This document shows positions 1-7,696 of a stretch of 7,696 bases of DNA, in pieces. The stretch is from a bacterium (lineage in GTDB: Bacteria > UBP7 > UBA6624): assembly GCA_014384545.1 (NCBI GenBank), contig JACNFQ010000082.1:1-7696 (forward strand), in the 5' to 3' direction. The translations under genes and the position numbers were made by a program. The notes beneath the pieces are model-generated. The model made no database searches, was not told where the DNA came from, and saw only the letters and a program-made list of their open reading frames with translations. Each line of letters begins with the position of its first letter. Positions within the stretch are counted from its first letter, which is position 1.

Positions 1-471
1 TTTGAGATTGGAGGGGTAGGGCGGGTCCATTACGGCACGCCGACCCAAACCCAAAACTCGCCTGTTGAAGTGATCTGGGACGTTGACTTTTCTCCCCCAT
101 TCCCTTGGTGGGTTTTGGGATTTGTTCCCCTAGGTCTTCTTGGTTACCTTATCCTTAGTCGTGCCCGCTTTCCTTCTTCTTTGTCCTTGGAAACACCTCA
201 TTCTAGATTCCGCCCTTCTAGAGTGGGCACCCATACCTTTCCATGGTCTCCGCAATCTGTGGAGATAGAGAAGAAGAAGGGAGTCTTGGTGGGCAAGTTA
301 TGGGCAGGGAAGCGTCCTAGGATCGTTCTGGTAGAAGAGGCGGTCGTCAATGGAAGGTCGCGTCGAAAGGGAAGTTCGTTCACTTTAAGGGATGGAGATA
401 GGGTCTCTTGGGGCGAATATGTGATAACCTACCAAGATAGCCGATCAAGGGGTCGGCGAAGGAGAGTTTGA
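1..471 (+). CDS. C-terminal part of a single-pass membrane protein with a cytoplasmic FHA-like domain (5' end outside the window)
   Basis: The frame is open from the first base, so this is the last 156 residues of a longer protein; the in-frame GTG at 70 is not taken as a start because coding continues upstream of it and it lacks a ribosome binding site. Visible parts: a beta-rich stretch (residues 1-29), a transmembrane helix at about residues 36-52 (WWVLGFVPLGLLGYLIL) followed by SRAR, which puts the C-terminus in the cytoplasm by the positive-inside rule, then a beta-rich domain at about 75-145. Its end, VNGR (about 116-119) followed by LRDGDRVSWGEYVITY (129-144), looks like the last strands of an FHA domain. 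The phosphothreonine-binding SRxH motif of classical FHA domains is not seen, so the domain may be divergent or another beta fold. The tail SRSRGRRRRV is strongly basic. In published clusters with large tubulin-like proteins a vWA membrane protein is the usual neighbour; no vWA is visible here, but it would lie upstream. The TGA overlaps the next ATG by one base. Confidence 0.85.
   Translation, partial: FEIGGVGRVHYGTPTQTQNSPVEVIWDVDFSPPFPWWVLGFVPLGLLGYLILSRARFPSSLSLETPHSRFRPSRVGTHTFPWSPQSVEIEKKKGVLVGKLWAGKRPRIVLVEEAVVNGRSRRKGSSFTLRDGDRVSWGEYVITYQDSRSRGRRRRV
459..464 (+). promoter_or_regulatory. Ribosome binding site deciding the start of the tubulin-like gene
   Basis: AAGGAG lies 6 bases before ATG 471, ideal spacing. 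It supports ATG 471 over the TTG at 468, which would add only one residue. The site lies inside the end of the upstream gene, so translation of the two genes is probably coupled. Confidence 0.75.
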
Positions 472-3400
472 TGGCATACATCTTTATCGGTTTGGGTGGT
501 ACAGGAACGAAAATTATCAACCATGCTGCCGAGGCTATCCGCAAATCACATGGAGAAGAGACTTTGGGGCAGTGTCGATTTATCAGCGTAGACACATGTT
601 TGCAAGACATGGAGGCTTTTACGACGAAGATTCCTGGTCGCTATCTGAGAATGGTACGCATTGGTGATACGGGTGGCCCCCAGATTCTTGAAAGGTGGGG
701 AGTGGAATACAAGCCCGCAGAGGTGGATAAGTTCTTCTATTCTTGGTTTCCCCGTCGAGGCGAACCGGGAGAGACCCAAATGGGCGGATTTTCCGAGGGT
801 GCTCAGGGTATGCGTATTGGAGGCCGGCTCGCTTTTTTCTACAATGCCGAGCGATTTGTAGACGCTTTTCGAGCACAAGTTGCTCAATTGGGCGAGATCT
901 CTACCGAAAAGGGACAGCGAATCGACTCCAGCGACCTCTCTGTCTTCATTGCAGCCTCTTTCTCTAACGGAACGGGGGGGGGCTGTTTCTTGGACGTCGC
1001 CAATATGGTTCGTCGCGTTATTCGGTCTGATATTGTCCAAGGGAATGCCCAAGTCAATGGCGTCTTCTTTACAGGGGATGTTGCTGCACGATTCCATAAA
1101 GGGAGTGGCGCTGCGAATGTCGCTAAAAGGTGGCGAAGGAATGGTATCCATTGCCTTGTAGAGACAGATTACTGGTTACGAAGCCAAAGTTTCCGTGAGC
1201 GCAAAGGGGGTACAAGAGAGTATGACCTTTACTACCCTTCGGTTAAGGATGCTTCTATCCAGCGTGACAGAGCGAGCGAACTAGAAGGAGAGCTCTTCAG
1301 TGTAGTCTACTTAGTAGGACCCAAGAATGCGCGGAGCAACAGCCTTGCCACCTACGACCATTACGTGAGCATTGCAGCTGAATCTCTTGTGGGGCTAGCG
1401 ATTACGCACGGTGCTCGACTTACCGATGAATTGCCCGAGCTAAAGCGCCCCGATGATGATGGTTCACCTAGGAAATATGCATCTTTGGGCCGTGTCAAAT
1501 TGGAGTTTCCTGTCAAAGCCGTTCGTGAGACCCTGGGAAACAAGGTGGCTGGGGATTCCCTAAAGACTTGGCTAAAGAGTCAGGGAACGAAGGATCCGCT
1601 AAAAGAGGCCAAGTCTTTTGCAAGCCAGCATAACTTAGATATCGAGAGCTTGGCCTCTACAGATTTGGATCCTGTAACGGGACTTATGACGGTCTTAGAA
1701 AAGCCCCGTACGATTGACGCATTCCGAACCATTAGATCGATCGCAGAAAACGGTGGTGAAGGAGCCGAAACAGGCGCCGATGTCCGCCGTGTGATTCAAG
1801 ATTTACAGGAGCATCTAGAAGCAGCCCGTACACGTTATCGTGAAGCGCGTGACGAAGCGTTAGCCCGTCACTTTGAAGCTGGATCAGATACGTTGTTGTT
1901 AGAAATTGGAACCGTCGCTAGCGAGTCTGGTTTGGGGGCTGCCAGAGCAGAACTAAACGCACTTATTGATCATCTTGATGGGGTTGCTGAGAATCTCTTT
2001 CGCCAGGTCGAAGCTAGGCGCAAAGATCCTCACAGACGTGCCACCTTGGATGAGAATTTCTCCGGAGACGTTGAAGATCTTTTCGAGGGTGTTGGCAAGT
2101 TGCCCTGGGGCAAGAAGAAGCGGCTTAGAAACGCCCAAGATCAAGCTGCAGCAGACTTGGTTGATCGTGTCAGCACAGCGATGGTGGAAGGTGATTTGGA
2201 TAGAGTCCATGGTCTTCTTTCAACCCAAATCGATTTGTGGCGCACTTGGGCTGTTCGGTTGGAGCGATTGGTTGAGGAATTGGGAAGTTATTCTGATGGG
2301 TTGGGACGAAGCACCGCACCAAAGAATGCCGATAGCTCTCTTGAATATGTCGTTGCGGCATCGAACGCTCGTTTCTTAGCCCATCTCTCGGAGAGCTTTA
2401 CGGGGGACAAGGAAGTCTTAGACCAAGTCCCTAGGTTTTTGGGTGAAGTGGGCACATGGGTTGGCCATTCCTTCTTGTCGCCAAATGGCCCCCTGACCCA
2501 ACGACATTGGGACGGGGTACCGGATGCTGATGCCACTAGAGCCCTGCAGAGCATTGTAAACCGATTTACGACAGGGCTTTTGCCCGATGAATCTCCCTTG
2601 TTGCCTCATAGCCTTGAAGAAGGCCTAAAGAGATATATCGATTGGATACTTGCACCTTATTGGAGGGCTGCTGAGAGAAAAGAGAGTAATAAGGCGAAAG
2701 AGATTCTTCATCAAGCCGGGAAAGAGGATCCCCTCCTTTTCAACGAAAGGGCAAGAGAGAGACTTCGTACGACACTTGAAGAAGGTGCTTTGTCGGGACC
2801 CGAGCGAAAAGAGCGCGACCGAAAAGATCTCGTTGCCGAATTGATTACCCGTCTCGCCAAGAAGGCAGCGCCTTGGTTGGGTGTGCCCGAACAGGCGTGG
2901 GATGCCGGTCCCAAGAGTTTCCTGCGCATCAATGAGCGCGCAAACAGTTGGTTGGTGGATATTGCGGGTAGCATGACCGAAACGATGTCTGCACAGGTAG
3001 GCGAAGTGGGCAGTCATGTCCTGGCCTTAACCACTTTTGCAGGGGGGGCTTCCTTAAAGTCACTATTCCCGGCCAACCGCCATAGAGAGATGTGGGAAGC
3101 TAGTTTTGATGATATCCCTCCCCCGTGGCCCGACAAGAGGTATTTCAAAACGCCTATTCGTGGTGGGGACTCTTGGTTCCATGATCCTTGGGAAGGTGTG
3201 GGCAGTGCTTTAGCCGACAAGATTCTTATTGCACTCGTCCTTCTCCATGGCTTAGACCACATTACATGGCTGCGCCCTGATAAAGGGAAAGGGAAAGACC
3301 GCCTCGTTGCCAAGACGAAATTGGGAGCGTGGATTCAAGAGGGAACGAATTTGGGTCTTGGCTGGGATGCAGCTGTAACGCAAGCCCAAGTGATGCCTTC

Positions 3401-3656
3401 AACTGATTTGGAAGGACTCTTTGCTCATTTGGGGGGAGAGATTCGACGCATCTGGGCTTCTGCGCCTCAAAAGGGTGAAGCGCGTGTCGCCCTTCAAGAT
3501 CTACTCAAGCCTGCTCAAGAGGGGTTCAATGCCCGCACAAAGGGACCCAAGAAGGAACAATGGGATGCTTTGTACCGGAAAGTTACAACTTATCTTGACC
3601 CGCAGGCACCAGAGAAGATTGACGAGATAAAGAACTTGTTTGCACCGGGTGCCTAA
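471..3656 (+). CDS. Large tubulin/FtsZ-superfamily GTP-binding protein (Tubulin_2-like) with long helical C-terminus
   Basis: The 1061-residue product starts MAYIFIGLGGTGTK, a hydrophobic strand leading into the first nucleotide-binding glycine loop (residues 7-14) of tubulin/FtsZ proteins. Strand 2 ends in SVDT (39-42). The family signature, the loop that holds the GTP phosphates, is SNGTGGGCFLD at 165-175, matching [SAG]GGTG[SAG]G with N for the first G. NGVFFTGD (196-203) and the helix ANVAKRWRRNGIHCLVETDY (215-234) sit where FtsZ has its T5 loop and the ribose/base-contacting helix. AAESLVGLAITHGA (302-315) may be the core helix H7; I do not see an NxDxxD T7 catalytic loop after it. Residues ~350-1061 are mainly charged helical sequence without recognised domains or transmembrane helices; a hydrophobic helix lies near 916-931. 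At 1061 residues it is far longer than FtsZ (~380-400). It probably binds GTP in the cytoplasm and assembles with the membrane proteins encoded around it. Family assignment is firm; polymerisation and GTP hydrolysis are inference. Confidence 0.9.
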   Translation: MAYIFIGLGGTGTKIINHAAEAIRKSHGEETLGQCRFISVDTCLQDMEAFTTKIPGRYLRMVRIGDTGGPQILERWGVEYKPAEVDKFFYSWFPRRGEPGETQMGGFSEGAQGMRIGGRLAFFYNAERFVDAFRAQVAQLGEISTEKGQRIDSSDLSVFIAASFSNGTGGGCFLDVANMVRRVIRSDIVQGNAQVNGVFFTGDVAARFHKGSGAANVAKRWRRNGIHCLVETDYWLRSQSFRERKGGTREYDLYYPSVKDASIQRDRASELEGELFSVVYLVGPKNARSNSLATYDHYVSIAAESLVGLAITHGARLTDELPELKRPDDDGSPRKYASLGRVKLEFPVKAVRETLGNKVAGDSLKTWLKSQGTKDPLKEAKSFASQHNLDIESLASTDLDPVTGLMTVLEKPRTIDAFRTIRSIAENGGEGAETGADVRRVIQDLQEHLEAARTRYREARDEALARHFEAGSDTLLLEIGTVASESGLGAARAELNALIDHLDGVAENLFRQVEARRKDPHRRATLDENFSGDVEDLFEGVGKLPWGKKKRLRNAQDQAAADLVDRVSTAMVEGDLDRVHGLLSTQIDLWRTWAVRLERLVEELGSYSDGLGRSTAPKNADSSLEYVVAASNARFLAHLSESFTGDKEVLDQVPRFLGEVGTWVGHSFLSPNGPLTQRHWDGVPDADATRALQSIVNRFTTGLLPDESPLLPHSLEEGLKRYIDWILAPYWRAAERKESNKAKEILHQAGKEDPLLFNERARERLRTTLEEGALSGPERKERDRKDLVAELITRLAKKAAPWLGVPEQAWDAGPKSFLRINERANSWLVDIAGSMTETMSAQVGEVGSHVLALTTFAGGASLKSLFPANRHREMWEASFDDIPPPWPDKRYFKTPIRGGDSWFHDPWEGVGSALADKILIALVLLHGLDHITWLRPDKGKGKDRLVAKTKLGAWIQEGTNLGLGWDAAVTQAQVMPSTDLEGLFAHLGGEIRRIWASAPQKGEARVALQDLLKPAQEGFNARTKGPKKEQWDALYRKVTTYLDPQAPEKIDEIKNLFAPGA
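974..982 (+). repeat. Nine-G homopolymer inside the GTP-binding signature of the tubulin-like gene
   Basis: Nine consecutive G residues form the codons ACG GGG GGG GGC, that is the T-G-G-G of the SNGTGGGC phosphate-binding loop. The reading frame is intact in this copy. A slip of one base here would truncate the protein after about 170 residues. Confidence 0.9.
3042..3048 (+). repeat. Seven-G homopolymer in the tubulin-like gene
   Basis: Seven consecutive G residues in the C-terminal part of the tubulin-like gene, encoding the GG of FAGGAS (about residues 858-859). The frame is intact. Confidence 0.85.
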
Positions 3657-3662
3657 GAGGGA
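3656..3662 (+). promoter_or_regulatory. Ribosome binding site deciding the start of the two-TM membrane gene
   Basis: AGAGGGA ends 4 bases before ATG 3667 (GAGG to ATG spacing is 6). It begins on the last base of the preceding stop codon. It favours ATG 3667 over the in-frame TTG 3640 and GTG 3649, which lie inside the upstream gene without a good purine-rich site. Confidence 0.65.
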
Positions 3663-3666
3663 CGCC

Positions 3667-5919
3667 ATGGGGGCGTTCCGTTCGGGCATTCTTTATGCCG
3701 GGCAGGACCCCGATCGCTTTCGGGGATTCGTTGAGGGGTTAACACCCTTCCTGCCATGGGATCGGGGCAATGCCCCTCTTCCACGCCTTTTTTTGGCACC
3801 CCATACAGATCAACTAGAGGCGAACAAGGTGTGGGTTGAAGGGGGGGTTAGATGGGTGCTGGGCGGAGCGAAAGGGGGGCATATCTTCTTGGTTTTGGAC
3901 AGCTCTCACCCCGATGCATCTCTCCATGCCCTTAGATTACTTTCCCAGAAGAAACGGCGCGACATTGGCGCTGTTCGTAGCCGCACTTCTGCTGTCATCG
4001 TTCTCCGTGGGGATAGAGAGACGAAGGCAGATTTCCTTACCCAAGTGGGCGATCTGCTTTCACCAAAGGGGGCTACCTCATCCCTCCTAGCCGATTACCC
4101 CCTTATACCATGGCCTATCTTCGTCATCGACCCCCAGTCGCGCTGGGATAGACCGTTGGGCATTGAAGAGATTGAGGCTCTGTCGGCGCTGTGGTCTTTG
4201 CTTATGCTCTCTCCTCACGAGGAGCTTTTGGCTTGGGATGCCCAGCAACTAAAGACGGTCATGGACGCGTCCTTAGTGAAATGGGGGGGGAAAGGCGTAC
4301 CACCGCTCCTTGCCGAAGGACGAATCGCCCTTCTTCTTTCGTCCCCCTGGATTCAAGCTCAAGCACAACGACTGCAGAATGCAGAATGGCGTTTGGAGGG
4401 TCGCAAATCTCCACTAAGAGATGACCCCGAGAAATGGGCAGATCGATTCAAGAATGAGATCCCCAAAGTCATTTCTCTCAATAGCGAAGGGATTTCCCTG
4501 GAAGAAGAGAAGGCACTCGTCGAGAGCCTCGTCTCATCACCAGGAGGGGATGGTCGCAACTTAGAGGCTAGGTTGCTTCGACGCCACGGTGCTTTGGGGG
4601 TAGATGTGGCAGCGATGCGTGTAGCGAAGACAACAGACAAGATTGCCACCCAATGGAAAGAGGGGCTTCTCCACAAGGCGACTTCGTTATCAGCTGTGCG
4701 TACCCGGATCTCCATAGCCAACGCGTTGCGGGCAGCGCTCAATGAAGCTGTTTCCGACGAAGAGAAGGAGCAAAGTAAACGGGGGGCAGCGGTTTCATCA
4801 TCGTTGGTCGCTATGGGCGAAAATGTAGGAAAAGAGCGTTCAAGGAGACTTGCAAAAGATGATCTTCCCCAATCTTGGTTCCCCTCATCTAGCCAAATTC
4901 AGCGTGTGGGATGGGCAACGACCGCCGCGATCTGGTTGCTCCTTTTACCCCTAATGGTTTGGCCGTGGATCCATGAGCCTTCTGGTTGGCAACTTCTTGC
5001 GTACCAAGGTTGGCAAAGTGCTGCTACATTTCAGGACGCGATGGGTACGATGTGGTGGGCATCCGCTCTTGAAAGAGTTTGGCTAAATGCGATCCAGGCT
5101 TCGACACCCTTAGAAGCAAAGGCGATCATTGAGGCGGCGACAACGAGGTTGTTTCATTTCCGTCTGGGGTTCTCCCTTCTCCTCTTCCTTCTTGGGGTCG
5201 GGCTCTCGTTTCTCCACAGAAGAAGAACGAGCCAAGCGATTCAAAGGATGAAGGATGAGCGAATCACCTGGAAGGCAGAGAGAGAAGGTGAGCCACTCCA
5301 AAGGTCTATTCTCCATGGAGCCCGCCAATTCCTTGAATCGCGGCAATCCTTTCTGGAAAGTGGGCTATATCTTGGTGGCCTTTCTTCGGCACTTCGCCAT
5401 GTGGAATCTGTTCTTGGTTGGCTGGAGGGACAGAGTGCAACCCTAGAAGCTTTGAGAGATCAAGTGGAGAAAACGCGTGGTCGCTTAGAAGGGTTGGCTT
5501 CGGGCTCTTCTTTCTTCTCTAACCTAGACCCCTTAGCACTGACCAAGAACCGCCCCGCACCTCCCGTGACGAGCAAGAGTGATTTAACTGATTGGGAAAG
5601 AGAAGTCGTCGTCGCTTCTGAAGTGCCCAAAGCGCTTGATAGGTATATTGCCCGTTCGCCTCCACCGCACCAAGATTGGATGAACGAACTTGATCTTAGG
5701 GATGTAGGTTCCTTAAGAAGTGGTCAGCCTAGCGATGAGAGTCTCTTTGTTTTTGGTAACGAGCGGATTCCCGGCGAAGGCATTCTCCGAGGTGTGCGAG
5801 GCGGTGAAGGTTTTGAATCGGAATCCACCCTGCCCATATCTGGTGCAGAAACGATTCTTGTGGCGGGAATGAGATTGGGATTGGTGCCTCGTTCGTTCTT
5901 CAAGGAGAGCAAGAAATGA
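3667..5919 (+). CDS. Uncharacterised two-transmembrane-helix protein with large cytoplasmic domains
   Basis: I do not recognise a named family in this 750-residue product. The start ATG 3667 (MGAFRSGILYAGQ) was chosen for its ribosome binding site and 10-base distance from the preceding stop. Residues ~1-400 have no signal peptide and contain alternating hydrophobic strands, HIFLVLDSS (72-80), SAVIVLRGD (108-116) and PIFVIDPQS (150-158), suggesting an alpha/beta fold; no Walker A, GTPase or intact MIDAS motif is visible. Two transmembrane helices follow at about 416-434 (AIWLLLLPLMVWPW) and 495-516 (GFSLLLFLLGVGLSFL), separated by about 60 residues that should be extracytoplasmic. HRRRT after the second helix places the C-terminus inside. 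Residues ~520-620 are amphipathic and possibly coiled-coil. The end overlaps the next start as ATGA. It may be the cytoplasmic-facing scaffold that links the tubulin-like protein to the membrane; that role rests on position and topology alone. Confidence 0.85.
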   Translation: MGAFRSGILYAGQDPDRFRGFVEGLTPFLPWDRGNAPLPRLFLAPHTDQLEANKVWVEGGVRWVLGGAKGGHIFLVLDSSHPDASLHALRLLSQKKRRDIGAVRSRTSAVIVLRGDRETKADFLTQVGDLLSPKGATSSLLADYPLIPWPIFVIDPQSRWDRPLGIEEIEALSALWSLLMLSPHEELLAWDAQQLKTVMDASLVKWGGKGVPPLLAEGRIALLLSSPWIQAQAQRLQNAEWRLEGRKSPLRDDPEKWADRFKNEIPKVISLNSEGISLEEEKALVESLVSSPGGDGRNLEARLLRRHGALGVDVAAMRVAKTTDKIATQWKEGLLHKATSLSAVRTRISIANALRAALNEAVSDEEKEQSKRGAAVSSSLVAMGENVGKERSRRLAKDDLPQSWFPSSSQIQRVGWATTAAIWLLLLPLMVWPWIHEPSGWQLLAYQGWQSAATFQDAMGTMWWASALERVWLNAIQASTPLEAKAIIEAATTRLFHFRLGFSLLLFLLGVGLSFLHRRRTSQAIQRMKDERITWKAEREGEPLQRSILHGARQFLESRQSFLESGLYLGGLSSALRHVESVLGWLEGQSATLEALRDQVEKTRGRLEGLASGSSFFSNLDPLALTKNRPAPPVTSKSDLTDWEREVVVASEVPKALDRYIARSPPPHQDWMNELDLRDVGSLRSGQPSDESLFVFGNERIPGEGILRGVRGGEGFESESTLPISGAETILVAGMRLGLVPRSFFKESKK
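3833..3863 (+). other. Candidate G-quadruplex sequence on the coding strand
   Basis: Four G tracts, GGG (3833-3835), GGGGGGG (3841-3847), GGG (3854-3856) and GGG (3861-3863), are separated by loops of 5, 6 and 4 bases, which satisfies the common G3N1-7 pattern. A fifth tract of six G follows at 3874-3879. It lies about 165 bases into the two-TM gene and would form in the mRNA or the coding DNA strand. Confidence 0.4.
4283..4290 (+). repeat. Eight-G homopolymer in the two-TM membrane gene
   Basis: Eight consecutive G residues encode the W-G-G of KWGGKG (about residues 206-208). The frame is intact here. Confidence 0.85.
5903..5907 (+). promoter_or_regulatory. Ribosome binding site for the four-TM membrane gene
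   Basis: AGGAG lies 8 bases before ATG 5916, within the last codons of the preceding gene. Together with the ATGA stop/start overlap it points to coupled translation. Confidence 0.7.
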
Positions 5920-7259
5920 GCGGTCGACCCTTTGGCTCTGTCGTGCGGCAAGCCTTCTTTCTTGCCATAGGGCTTCTGACGCACAATATCTTTTTTTGGA
6001 TACTCTATCAAACTGTTCCCATGGTGACTTGGGGAACGCGGCCAGGTGCCCCTTTCTTGATGGGATTCCCGACCAAAGCATCCCCTTGGGATGTCGTTGC
6101 TCCTCTCTTGTTATTCGGGGGGATTGGCGCTTTCTCACTTTGGCGTGCGGGACAATCACCCTCCAAGATTGACCGATCTTGGGGGGGGGCCGTCAAGGCT
6201 CTCAGAAAACCGATTTCTGCTCTAGGGGTTGCTGCGTTCATTTTCGGTCTGTTCTGGATCGTTGGAGCCTTTGGTGGGTGGGGCATCCGCTGGGTGATTC
6301 CATCCTCTCTAACACCACAGAAGGTCATGGCTAGGAGAATTGATGAGACATTGGGGGGAGGTTCAATCGTCCACTTTACCCAAGGTTTAACGTCAACTCA
6401 ACGACTCTATGATGGGGATGCCTCAGTCTGGGATGCCTTAGAGCGGGATCTTCTTGTCGAGATTAGGTGGAGCCCAGAAAATGAAGATGCCAGTCGCCCC
6501 GACTGGTATGAAGGGATATGGGCTCCCCATTGCGCCGAACCGATAAGCAAAGATGGTTGTTTTGGCTCGAAGGGTGGTGTGGCACAGATGATTGAGCATT
6601 TGACCTATGTCGTGCTTGGTGATACACCCCCTTGGCGACAGACAGGGATTCCCCCATGTCGGTCCGGTTGGGATACCGACCCTCAAGATGGTCTCATTCA
6701 AACGAAAGAGTTCGGGAAAGAGAGCTTTGGGCAACAAGGTATTGGTTGTACTCTATCAGGGGCAGTTCTTGCCGATTGGCGGGATTGCAGGGGATGTATG
6801 CATCCTCCTGAATTCGAAAAGTGGGATGGGGTTGCGGGATATCGCCTATTCCAACGCATTGCACGATTGGATGGTGGTGCGGATCCCCACAAACTTTCGG
6901 TGAGTGAAGAAGACTTATCATTGCTCTTTTCTCGGTGGACATTGCTACCTTTCTTTTGGGGGGCCACTCTTCTTTGGCTTGGTTTTCTTATACGGGGTAT
7001 AGGTGACGAATCAGATAGGCTCAATCTAAGCGAGCCCCTACAGATCCATGTAAGACGAACCCACCCCCTTAAGTTTTTGGCTCGGGTTAACCTAGGAAAG
7101 TTCCATAAAGCGATGGCCCAATTGGGAGAAGCTGTCAATGGCATATCCACGCGCAAAGCTGAAGGTCTGACGCCACCTAAGTGGGTTGAGGATGGTGCCG
7201 ATGAAGGAGAATCAGATGTCGGTGATGATGACGGCGGTGATATCGAGGTGGTGGGATGA
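5916..7259 (+). CDS. Uncharacterised four-transmembrane-helix protein with Cys-containing extracytoplasmic domain and acidic tail
   Basis: The 447-residue product is not one I recognise. Transmembrane helices are at about residues 12-33 (AFFLAIGLLTHNIFFWILY), 59-76 (VVAPLLLFGGIGAFSLW), 100-122 (GVAAFIFGLFWIVGAFGG) and 342-360 (LLPFFWGATLLWLGFLI). Basic residues before helix 1 (R4, R11), in the loop 77-99 (R, K, K, R, K, R) and after helix 4 (R360) give an N-in, C-in topology. This leaves residues ~127-340 outside the cytoplasm as one large domain with six cysteines (206, 215, 248, 278, 291, 294) and many Trp, Asp and Pro residues; all the cysteines of the protein are in this domain, as expected for disulfides. 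The cytoplasmic tail 361-447 ends in a strongly acidic, Gly-rich stretch (DEGESDVGDDDGGDIE). ATGA overlaps join it to both neighbours, so it is probably made in fixed ratio with them and forms part of the same membrane complex, possibly its outward-facing sensor or channel part (inference). Confidence 0.85.
   Translation: MSGRPFGSVVRQAFFLAIGLLTHNIFFWILYQTVPMVTWGTRPGAPFLMGFPTKASPWDVVAPLLLFGGIGAFSLWRAGQSPSKIDRSWGGAVKALRKPISALGVAAFIFGLFWIVGAFGGWGIRWVIPSSLTPQKVMARRIDETLGGGSIVHFTQGLTSTQRLYDGDASVWDALERDLLVEIRWSPENEDASRPDWYEGIWAPHCAEPISKDGCFGSKGGVAQMIEHLTYVVLGDTPPWRQTGIPPCRSGWDTDPQDGLIQTKEFGKESFGQQGIGCTLSGAVLADWRDCRGCMHPPEFEKWDGVAGYRLFQRIARLDGGADPHKLSVSEEDLSLLFSRWTLLPFFWGATLLWLGFLIRGIGDESDRLNLSEPLQIHVRRTHPLKFLARVNLGKFHKAMAQLGEAVNGISTRKAEGLTPPKWVEDGADEGESDVGDDDGGDIEVVG
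6181..6189 (+). repeat. Nine-G homopolymer in the four-TM membrane gene
   Basis: Nine consecutive G residues encode the end of W, then G, G and the first base of A in SWGGAV (about residues 88-93), in the cytoplasmic loop between helices 2 and 3. The frame is intact. Slippage would remove helices 3 and 4 and the outer domain. Confidence 0.9.
7245..7250 (+). promoter_or_regulatory. Ribosome binding site for the helicase-like gene
   Basis: GAGGTG lies 5 bases before ATG 7256, inside the last codons of the preceding gene. It supports this ATG as the start of the helicase-like protein. Confidence 0.65.
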
Positions 7260-7696
7260 GGAAGCGGGAGTCGGAGCGCATCCTAGGGGCGTCTCTCTTT
7301 CCAAAGGGGGGTGAAAGGGTTCTCCAAGGCACGAGTAAGGGGCGTTCTTCTCTCGTCGCTTCTCCGGCAGGCACAGGCAAGCGAGATTTGGCAGCACTGG
7401 CGTTGCTGGAATCCCTCCTTAGTGGTGCTTCTTGGGTTCTTTCGCTTTCCCCAGGTCAAAAACGGGCACGCCGATGGTCTCGCAGGGTAGGGCGAGCGAT
7501 TGAAACATCAAGCTGGGCAGAGTCATTCCAGATTATTGGCCCCTCGGAGGATTCTCTGTTAGAGAGTGTGGAAGCCGTTTCTGGTGGACGGGGAGGGCTC
7601 TTTCGGGGCTTGCCCGCTCTTCAAGCCCTGCTCGTTCATTCCCCGCCATTCCGAGAGAACATCCTTCCTCGCCTTGGGGCAGTATCTGTGGAGGGT
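7256..7696 (+). CDS. Superfamily-2 (DEAD/DEAH-type) helicase-like protein, probably catalytically degenerate (3' end outside the window)
   Basis: The first 147 residues are present and the frame is open to the window end. The start ATG 7256 overlaps the previous stop as ATGA and has a GAGGTG ribosome binding site. Residues 33-55 (LVASPAGTGKRDLAALALLESLL) have the shape of SF2 helicase motif I plus its helix, usually APTGSGKT; here the Mg-contacting Ser/Thr after GK is Arg43. WVLSLSPGQKRARRWSRRVG (60-79) matches the motif Ia region (usually 'vLyl.PtraLa'). PALQALLVHSPPFRENILPR (120-139) followed by LGAVSVEG (140-147) matches the 'tTPe.LhalLl...lr.LglVVvDEaH' stretch that carries motif II, but the D of DE is Val145. 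Two catalytic motifs thus look altered, suggesting a nucleic-acid-binding or structural protein rather than an active helicase. Motifs III-VI and any C-terminal domain lie outside. A general P-loop ATPase of another family remains possible because only the N-terminus is seen. Confidence 0.75.
   Translation, partial: MRKRESERILGASLFPKGGERVLQGTSKGRSSLVASPAGTGKRDLAALALLESLLSGASWVLSLSPGQKRARRWSRRVGRAIETSSWAESFQIIGPSEDSLLESVEAVSGGRGGLFRGLPALQALLVHSPPFRENILPRLGAVSVEG

What the first reader, a model, noticed from the sequence alone, without database searches (positions are those of the whole stretch)
1..7696. Coupled operon joining a large tubulin-like protein, three membrane proteins and a helicase-like protein
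Seen: five co-directional genes with overlaps of 1-4 bases or a 10-base gap. Known: large FtsZ/tubulin-like proteins encoded beside vWA membrane proteins were proposed by Makarova and Koonin to form a membrane-remodelling system also including a distinct GTPase and OmpA-type proteins. Inference: this version has a different partner set, with a four-TM Cys-rich protein, a two-TM protein with big cytoplasmic domains and an SF2 helicase-like protein. A membrane complex coupled to a helicase-like protein recalls the logic of the Zorya defence system (MotAB-like membrane proteins plus helicase), so an anti-phage or DNA-uptake-related function is worth testing.
Basis: partly seen in the sequence, partly recalled or inferred. 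Interest (0 to 1): 0.75.

Follow-up and report, generated by a model that had tools for sequence, protein, structure and literature searches.

The report
Tubulin, vWA and helicase membrane operon
This DNA encodes a bacterial tubulin-like protein in one operon with membrane proteins and a probable DNA helicase; similar sets in a few unrelated bacteria, several of them beside known anti-virus genes, suggest a little-known membrane-based defence or DNA-handling machine.

Summary
In detail: five co-directional, coupled genes fill the window, which is a whole 7,696-bp contig. Gene 2 is a Tubulin_2 (FtsZl1) protein (PF13809, E 4e-36). Gene 1 is the tail of a membrane vWA protein: it matches the C-terminus of a complete vWA gene on contig C104 of the same genome (Z 15.7). 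Gene 5 is a weak, truncated SF2 helicase-like start; its best support is G316, where a 4-TM protein fused to a YprA/MrfA-type helicase sits in the same place. C104 probably carries the rest of gene 5, then two vWA genes. Tubulin_2 genes also sit in or beside operons with other DNA motors (BrxL, HerA-like). Several of these loci adjoin Hma, DISARM-like or type III-D CRISPR genes; ordinary Tubulin_2 loci do not. Best reading: a tubulin-scaffolded, vWA-sensing membrane complex coupled to a YprA-type helicase, most likely an anti-MGE system. It resembles Zorya in logic but is not Zorya. Function is untested. New variant of a known kind.

The parts
1..471 (+). Gene 1, 3' part only (5' end cut by contig): C-terminal tail of a vWA membrane protein: TM helix after a PPxPWWV motif, then a small FHA-like beta domain ending in RRRR (cytoplasmic by inference)
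   Evidence: Matches the C-terminus of vWA2 on contig C104 (L156:2548-4518, PF13519 8.6e-10): Smith-Waterman Z 15.7, 0 of 500 shuffles; also resembles vWA proteins upstream of other Tubulin_2 genes
471..3656 (+). Gene 2: Tubulin_2 / FtsZl1 family protein, 1061 aa; T1 loop GLGGTGT intact, T4 loop NGTGGGC diverged from the usual GGTGSG
   Evidence: PF13809 E 4.1e-36 over residues 5-364; alignment with 16 relatives
3667..5919 (+). Gene 3: 750-aa protein with two central TM helices and large domains on both sides; positional equivalent of the second, membrane-anchored tubulin-like protein of other loci (homology itself not shown)
   Evidence: Slot and topology; second-slot families match the Tubulin_2 profile at probability 82-99.8 when Tub is the query, best E 1e-28; for gene 3 itself no detectable similarity and a failed model (pLDDT 38.7)
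5916..7259 (+). Gene 4: 447-aa multi-TM protein (3-4 TM, six Cys in the loop before the last TM, acidic C-tail)
   Evidence: Hydropathy and Cys positions; multi-TM proteins in the same slot in L041 (fused to helicase), L028 and Clostridium loci L045/L052
7256..7696 (+). Gene 5, 5' part only (cut by contig end): probable start of a YprA/MrfA-like SF2 helicase; P-loop PAGTGKR lacks the usual Ser/Thr
   Evidence: DEAD E 0.1, Hel308/RhlE2 models 0.035-0.11; aligned end to end with the G316 helicase through motifs I, Ia and II (hhalign E 0.0013, 32% over 59 aa; Smith-Waterman 12 of 1000 shuffles reach it); YprA-type profile score reached by 5 of 250 random fragments

Best explanation
A membrane-anchored, tubulin-scaffolded complex coupled to a nucleic-acid motor, most likely acting against incoming phage or plasmid DNA. 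Shown: a Tubulin_2 protein, a membrane vWA protein tail, a two-TM protein with large flanking domains, a multi-TM protein and the start of a probable YprA/MrfA-type helicase are co-encoded; a comparable arrangement with a clear YprA-type helicase fused to the TM protein occurs in an unrelated phylum. Inferred mechanism: the vWA domain, outside the inner membrane, senses envelope disturbance or a ligand and signals through its TM and FHA-like tail; the tubulin-like protein binds GTP and assembles with the two-TM protein under the membrane; this assembly positions or activates the membrane-tethered helicase, which engages DNA at the entry site and unwinds it, blocks it or hands it to a nuclease.
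For: Operon coupling. Tubulin_2. vWA tail. Same-slot fusion of 4 TMs and a full-length YprA-type helicase in G316 (DEAD 2.4e-6; MrfA/YprA structure 6znp E 0.003; YprA-type profile probability 96.9, E 1.5e-10 over residues 303-1122). Contig C104 of the same genome starts with an open ORF whose winged-helix/beta region aligns collinearly with YprA positions 472-553 (E 0.019; 4 of 120 random fragments as good), followed by overlapping vWA1-vWA2-small TM genes; in G346 a vWA gene also follows the gene in the helicase slot. Other Tubulin_2 loci with DNA motors: BrxL in G306, Bacterium HR30, Allomeiothermus, Meiothermus and Thermus plasmids; HerA-like ATPases in Acidobacteria J014 and G316. Neighbours include HmaA-B-C, DrmD/DrmMI-like, Cas7-IIId, Csx1 and a viperin-like protein, whereas 113 flanking genes of 24 loci without such motors gave only kinase- and regulator-type hits among the families listed. 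Sporadic: 1 of 3 genomes in the window's family, 1 of 40 in G346's phylum over most of the domain, 2 of 7 in G316's. YprA helicases are central to DISARM, Dpd, Druantia and ARMADA (PMC12458937).
Against: Gene 5 is truncated and its helicase assignment is weak; its P-loop GKR could mean a dead ATPase. C104 is joined by inference only; no end overlap was found. No defence gene was found on C104, whose downstream neighbours are nadA, nadC, folK and glyA, and upstream is unknown. Most Tubulin_2 loci in Clostridium, cyanobacteria, Chloroflexota and spirochaetes are not in defence islands. Window composition matches its host, so no sign of recent transfer. The flank comparison was neither blinded nor exhaustive.
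Confidence: 0.45

Rival explanations
1. Membrane-remodelling or envelope-maintenance machine, as Makarova and Koonin proposed for FtsZl1: the tubulin and vWA proteins shape or police the membrane in normal life, and the helicase-like gene is an accessory (for example for membrane-proximal RNA or chromosome handling).
For: The vWA-Tub-second protein-multiTM core is widespread and kept across cyanobacteria, Chloroflexota, Clostridium and spirochaetes in non-defence surroundings; PMC2875224 proposed this role.
Against: Patchy presence in the phyla with motor-linked versions; repeated exchange of the DNA-motor partner (YprA-type, BrxL, HerA-like) and defence-gene neighbours.
Confidence: 0.25
2. 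DNA uptake, transfer or segregation apparatus: a membrane complex that threads DNA with a motor (helicase, BrxL, HerA-like), anchored by tubulin filaments.
For: DNA motors of the HerA type move DNA (established knowledge); several loci are on large Thermaceae plasmids.
Against: No competence, relaxase or type IV secretion genes noticed next to the loci examined; the four plasmids are typed as non-mobilizable.
Confidence: 0.12
3. Membrane-anchored conflict system of the tubulin/vWA kind in which the helicase fold is catalytically dead and serves as a nucleic-acid sensor or scaffold that triggers cell death or dormancy through the TM proteins.
For: Gene 5 P-loop GTGKR lacks the Ser/Thr; the G346 protein in this slot has no recognisable helicase motif I; inactive enzyme domains are reported in related conflict systems (PMC7159879).
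Against: The G316 homologue has an intact GKT Walker A; motif II of gene 5 is at the contig end and cannot be judged.
Confidence: 0.13

Closest known systems
FtsZl1 (Tubulin_2)/vWA system of Makarova and Koonin 2010 (PMC2875224)
   Same: Tubulin_2 protein beside a membrane vWA protein and lineage-specific TM proteins
   Different: No GTPase, OmpA-type protein or kinase seen in the window or the C104 operon; adds a probable YprA-type helicase, which the parts of that paper read here do not mention
GAP1-N2 GTPase-tubulin-vWA conflict systems (Kaur et al. 2020, PMC7159879)
   Same: Tubulin genes (two in Firmicutes) with vWA membrane proteins, already proposed as conflict systems
   Different: GTPase-centred; no helicase, BrxL or HerA reported with the tubulins in the passages found; no GTPase here
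YprA-family defence helicases: DISARM, Dpd, Druantia, ARMADA, BRIGADE, TALON (PMC12458937)
   Same: YprA/MrfA-type SF2 helicase as the likely DNA-engaging part
   Different: Here tethered to the membrane and linked to tubulin and vWA proteins; that survey's main text has no mention of tubulin, vWA or transmembrane
Zorya
   Same: Logic of a membrane complex plus a helicase
   Different: No ZorA/ZorB/ZorD match; tubulin and vWA instead of a MotAB-like motor; YprA-type rather than SNF2-type helicase
BREX component BrxL
   Same: In Thermaceae and Bacterium HR30 a BrxL gene follows vWA-Tub-hypothetical
   Different: The window has no BrxL

Membership tests
FtsZl1 / Tubulin_2 | N-terminal Tubulin_2 GTP-binding domain | tested here: met
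   PF13809 E 4.1e-36, residues 5-364
FtsZl1 / Tubulin_2 | vWA-domain partner in the operon | tested here: met
   Gene 1 is a vWA-type tail; its vWA domain itself lies beyond the contig end. Two vWA-domain genes on C104 (vWA1 only by a weak match)
FtsZl1 / Tubulin_2 | Coiled coil and alpha-helical C-terminal domain | not tested
   -
FtsZl1 / Tubulin_2 | Associated GTPase, kinase or OmpA-type protein (frequent, not universal) | tested here: inconclusive
   None in the window or the C104 operon, but the operon is incomplete
Kaur GAP1-N2 tubulin conflict system | GAP1-type GTPase in the neighbourhood | tested here: inconclusive
   Not found in the window or C104; upstream unknown
YprA/MrfA helicase family | RecA1-RecA2 core with ATPase motifs | tested here: inconclusive
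   Gene 5 has a motif I/Ia-like region only; met in the G316 homologue
YprA/MrfA helicase family | wHTH-OB-CON-DUF1998 C-terminal module | tested here: inconclusive
   C104 fragment aligns weakly at YprA positions 472-553 with a winged-helix hit E 0.08; its link to gene 5 is unproven
Zorya | ZorA/ZorB MotAB-like proteins | tested here: not met
   No PADLOC match for any window protein
Zorya | ZorD SNF2-type helicase | tested here: not met
   No PADLOC match for the gene 5 fragment, though the fragment is short; its likely homologue is YprA-type

The most novel reading that the evidence does not exclude
A new class of YprA-helicase immune system in which DNA engagement is physically tethered to the inner membrane and controlled by a tubulin-like polymer and vWA sensors, a cytoskeleton-based defence. 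Related Tubulin_2 modules use BrxL or HerA-like motors in its place.
Probability: 0.33. Interest if true: 0.88.

Novelty: new variant of a known kind. Interest (0 to 1): 0.62.

Why it matters
Tubulin_2 proteins are widespread and, as far as the papers found here show, have had no demonstrated function since they were described in 2010. Finding them repeatedly with DNA motors, in several lineages beside known defence genes and on cultivable Thermaceae plasmids, turns an old membrane-remodelling guess into a testable claim: a prokaryotic tubulin that organises DNA-targeting machines at the membrane.

Tried and rejected
Single-sequence AlphaFold models of gene 3 and gene 5 failed (pLDDT 38.7 and 39.1), so no fold search was run. 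Gene 3 as a second tubulin: profile alignments gave nothing; a weak excess of similarity to Tubulin_2 proteins did not fall in the expected register, so I do not claim homology. phmmer of genes 1, 3, 4 and 5 against all neighbouring ORFs found nothing. SulA hit of gene 5 (E 0.003, below cut-off): rejected as a RecA-like P-loop resemblance, since helicase models align in the same region. Contig C37 helicase (SNF2-like, open at one end): rejected as the continuation because its ORF already contains its own motif I and II region. Mis-binning of the contig: composition fits. End overlap between the window and other fetched contigs: none. No plasmid match for gene 3 or the G316 helicase. G001 of the same family has a methyltransferase/helicase/MZB cluster but no tubulin. 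The alignment of 12 tubulins was too diverse for the collection scan, so a four-row alignment was used.

Full report
OBSERVATION. The window is an entire contig (G000:C8, 7,696 bp) of a 1.39-Mb, 79% complete genome with only two relatives in its family among the genomes held. Five + strand ORFs fill it, with junctions TGATG at 469-473, a 10-base gap at 3656/3667 (or a TTG start at 3640), and ATGA overlaps at 5916 and 7256. No promoter or terminator excess and no Rfam match. Composition matches the rest of the genome.

GENE 2. PF13809 (Tubulin_2) matches residues 5-364 at E 4.1e-36. The T1 loop is intact; the T4 loop reads NGTGGGC rather than GGTGSG. This is the FtsZl1 family of Makarova and Koonin (PMC2875224).

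GENE 1. It ends a protein cut by the contig start. Contig C104 of the same genome (L156) holds a complete 656-aa vWA protein (PF13519 8.6e-10) whose last 145 residues align with gene 1: Smith-Waterman score 114, Z 15.7, 0 of 500 shuffles. Gene 1 is therefore the TM and FHA-like tail of a vWA-type protein; the vWA domain itself is off the contig.

GENES 3 AND 4. Neighbourhoods of 16 Tubulin_2 genes and 80 more from named genomes show a common order: vWA, Tubulin_2, a 550-1,100-aa protein often with two central TMs, and often a multi-TM protein. Two central TMs occur in 36 of 62 such second-slot proteins and 5 of 235 other genes of similar size (p 3e-24); gene 3 has this layout. The loci are not all independent, so the p-value overstates the case. 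In cyanobacteria, Chloroflexota, Clostridium, Paenibacillus-like genomes, L040, L087 and L110 the second-slot protein matches the Tubulin_2 profile (hhalign probability 82-99.8 with Tub as query, 96.9 with Clostridium as query, best E 1e-28; PF13809 E 7.5e-4 in L040). Two tubulin genes were reported before for Firmicutes GAP1 systems (PMC7159879). For gene 3 itself no sequence link could be shown and its model failed. So the partner set of genes 1-4 is the ordinary one, not a different one.

GENE 5. Alone it gives only weak helicase hits (DEAD E 0.1; RhlE2 0.035; Hel308 0.08-0.11). In G316 (L041) the order is vWA, Tub, 859-aa two-TM protein, then a 1,194-aa protein with four TMs fused to a helicase. 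The helicase part matches DEAD at 2.4e-6, the YprA/MrfA structure 6znp at 0.003 and a profile of 19 MZB-domain YprA-type helicases at probability 96.9, E 1.5e-10, across residues 303-1122. Gene 5 aligns with this helicase end to end through motifs I, Ia and II (hhalign E 0.0013; shuffles 12 of 1000), and with the YprA-type profile at the motif I region better than 245 of 250 random fragments. Its P-loop reads GTGKR. Genes 4 and 5 thus look like a split form of the G316 fusion. In G346 (L028) a 1,251-aa TM protein in that slot has at most a trace of YprA similarity at its C-terminus (E 0.09).

CONTINUATION ON C104. C104 begins with a 424-aa ORF open at its 5' end. It has a weak winged-helix hit (E 0.08) and a weak collinear match to YprA positions 472-553 (E 0.019; 4 of 120 random fragments reach it), probably the region of the helical (wHTH) and OB folds in this family (PMC12458937). 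Overlapping genes for two vWA proteins and a 90-aa TM coiled coil follow, then convergent housekeeping genes. In G346 a vWA gene also follows the TM gene. I infer that C104 continues the operon (about 80% likely by judgement); no end overlap was found.

DNA MOTORS AND DEFENCE NEIGHBOURS. Tubulin_2 genes stand with other DNA motors too: BrxL in G306 (2.5e-105), Bacterium HR30 and plasmids of Allomeiothermus silvanus, Meiothermus taiwanensis and Thermus oshimai; HerA-like ATPases in the operon of Acidobacteria J014 and divergent from it in G316, 3e-58 to each other. Adjacent genes include HmaA-B-C (M. taiwanensis; HmaB and HmaC in G306), DrmD- and DrmMI-like genes (A. silvanus), and Cas7-IIId, Csx1 and a viperin-like radical SAM protein (G346). 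By contrast, 113 flanking genes from 24 Tubulin_2 loci without such motors gave, among the families listed, only kinase-type, RtcR-like and single hits at E 1e-15. Presence is sporadic in the phyla with such versions. YprA helicases are central to DISARM, Dpd, Druantia and ARMADA, and the 2025 survey of about 52,000 YprA homologues does not mention tubulin, vWA or transmembrane forms in its main text.

MECHANISM. Shown: the gene set, its recurrence with a bona fide YprA-type helicase in another phylum, and motor exchange in related loci. Inferred: vWA sensing outside the membrane, tubulin assembly under it with the two-TM protein, and activation of a membrane-tethered helicase on incoming DNA. 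Rivals are envelope maintenance, DNA uptake, and a dead-helicase sensor.

VERDICT. The anatomy is well supported except for gene 5, which is probable. The defence reading is the best current explanation but rests on context. It is not Zorya. It is a helicase-linked variant of the Tubulin_2/vWA systems and, if the helicase call holds, an undescribed setting for a YprA-family helicase.

Noticed in passing
L132, L133, L134 (plasmids of Allomeiothermus silvanus, Meiothermus taiwanensis, Thermus oshimai); L033; L100: Conserved vWA - tubulin-like - hypothetical (about 680 aa) - BrxL cassette on Thermaceae plasmids, next to Hma, DISARM-like or RecQ/exonuclease genes; a cultivable test case.
   Followed up: partly
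L041:17022-19874 and L110:11287-13986: HerA-like ATPases with long N-terminal extensions at two unrelated Tubulin_2 loci; ATPase parts match at E 3e-58.
   Followed up: partly
L040:2819-6991: Second tubulin-like protein with TMs fused to a C-terminal transglutaminase domain (PF01841 1.7e-9); Clostridium four-TM proteins (L045, L052) also seem, by eye, to end in a transglutaminase-like stretch.
   Followed up: no
L028:418-6047: Type III-D CRISPR Cas7, Csx1 and a viperin-like radical SAM protein directly upstream of a Tubulin_2 operon in G346.
   Followed up: partly
L129, L130, L131: Remote tubulin-like proteins (about 500 aa) followed by a roughly 1,150-aa protein; in L129 and L130 also an Hsp70 and a large multi-TM protein. 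Possibly a separate tubulin/Hsp70 system.
   Followed up: no
window 7256-7696: P-loop of gene 5 is GTGKR instead of GKS/T; whether this marks a dead ATPase cannot be told from the truncated gene.
   Followed up: partly
L204 (G001, same family as the window genome): Cluster with a DNA methyltransferase-like gene, a large helicase-like protein and an MZB-hit protein, a probable DISARM-like island in a relative without the tubulin.
   Followed up: no
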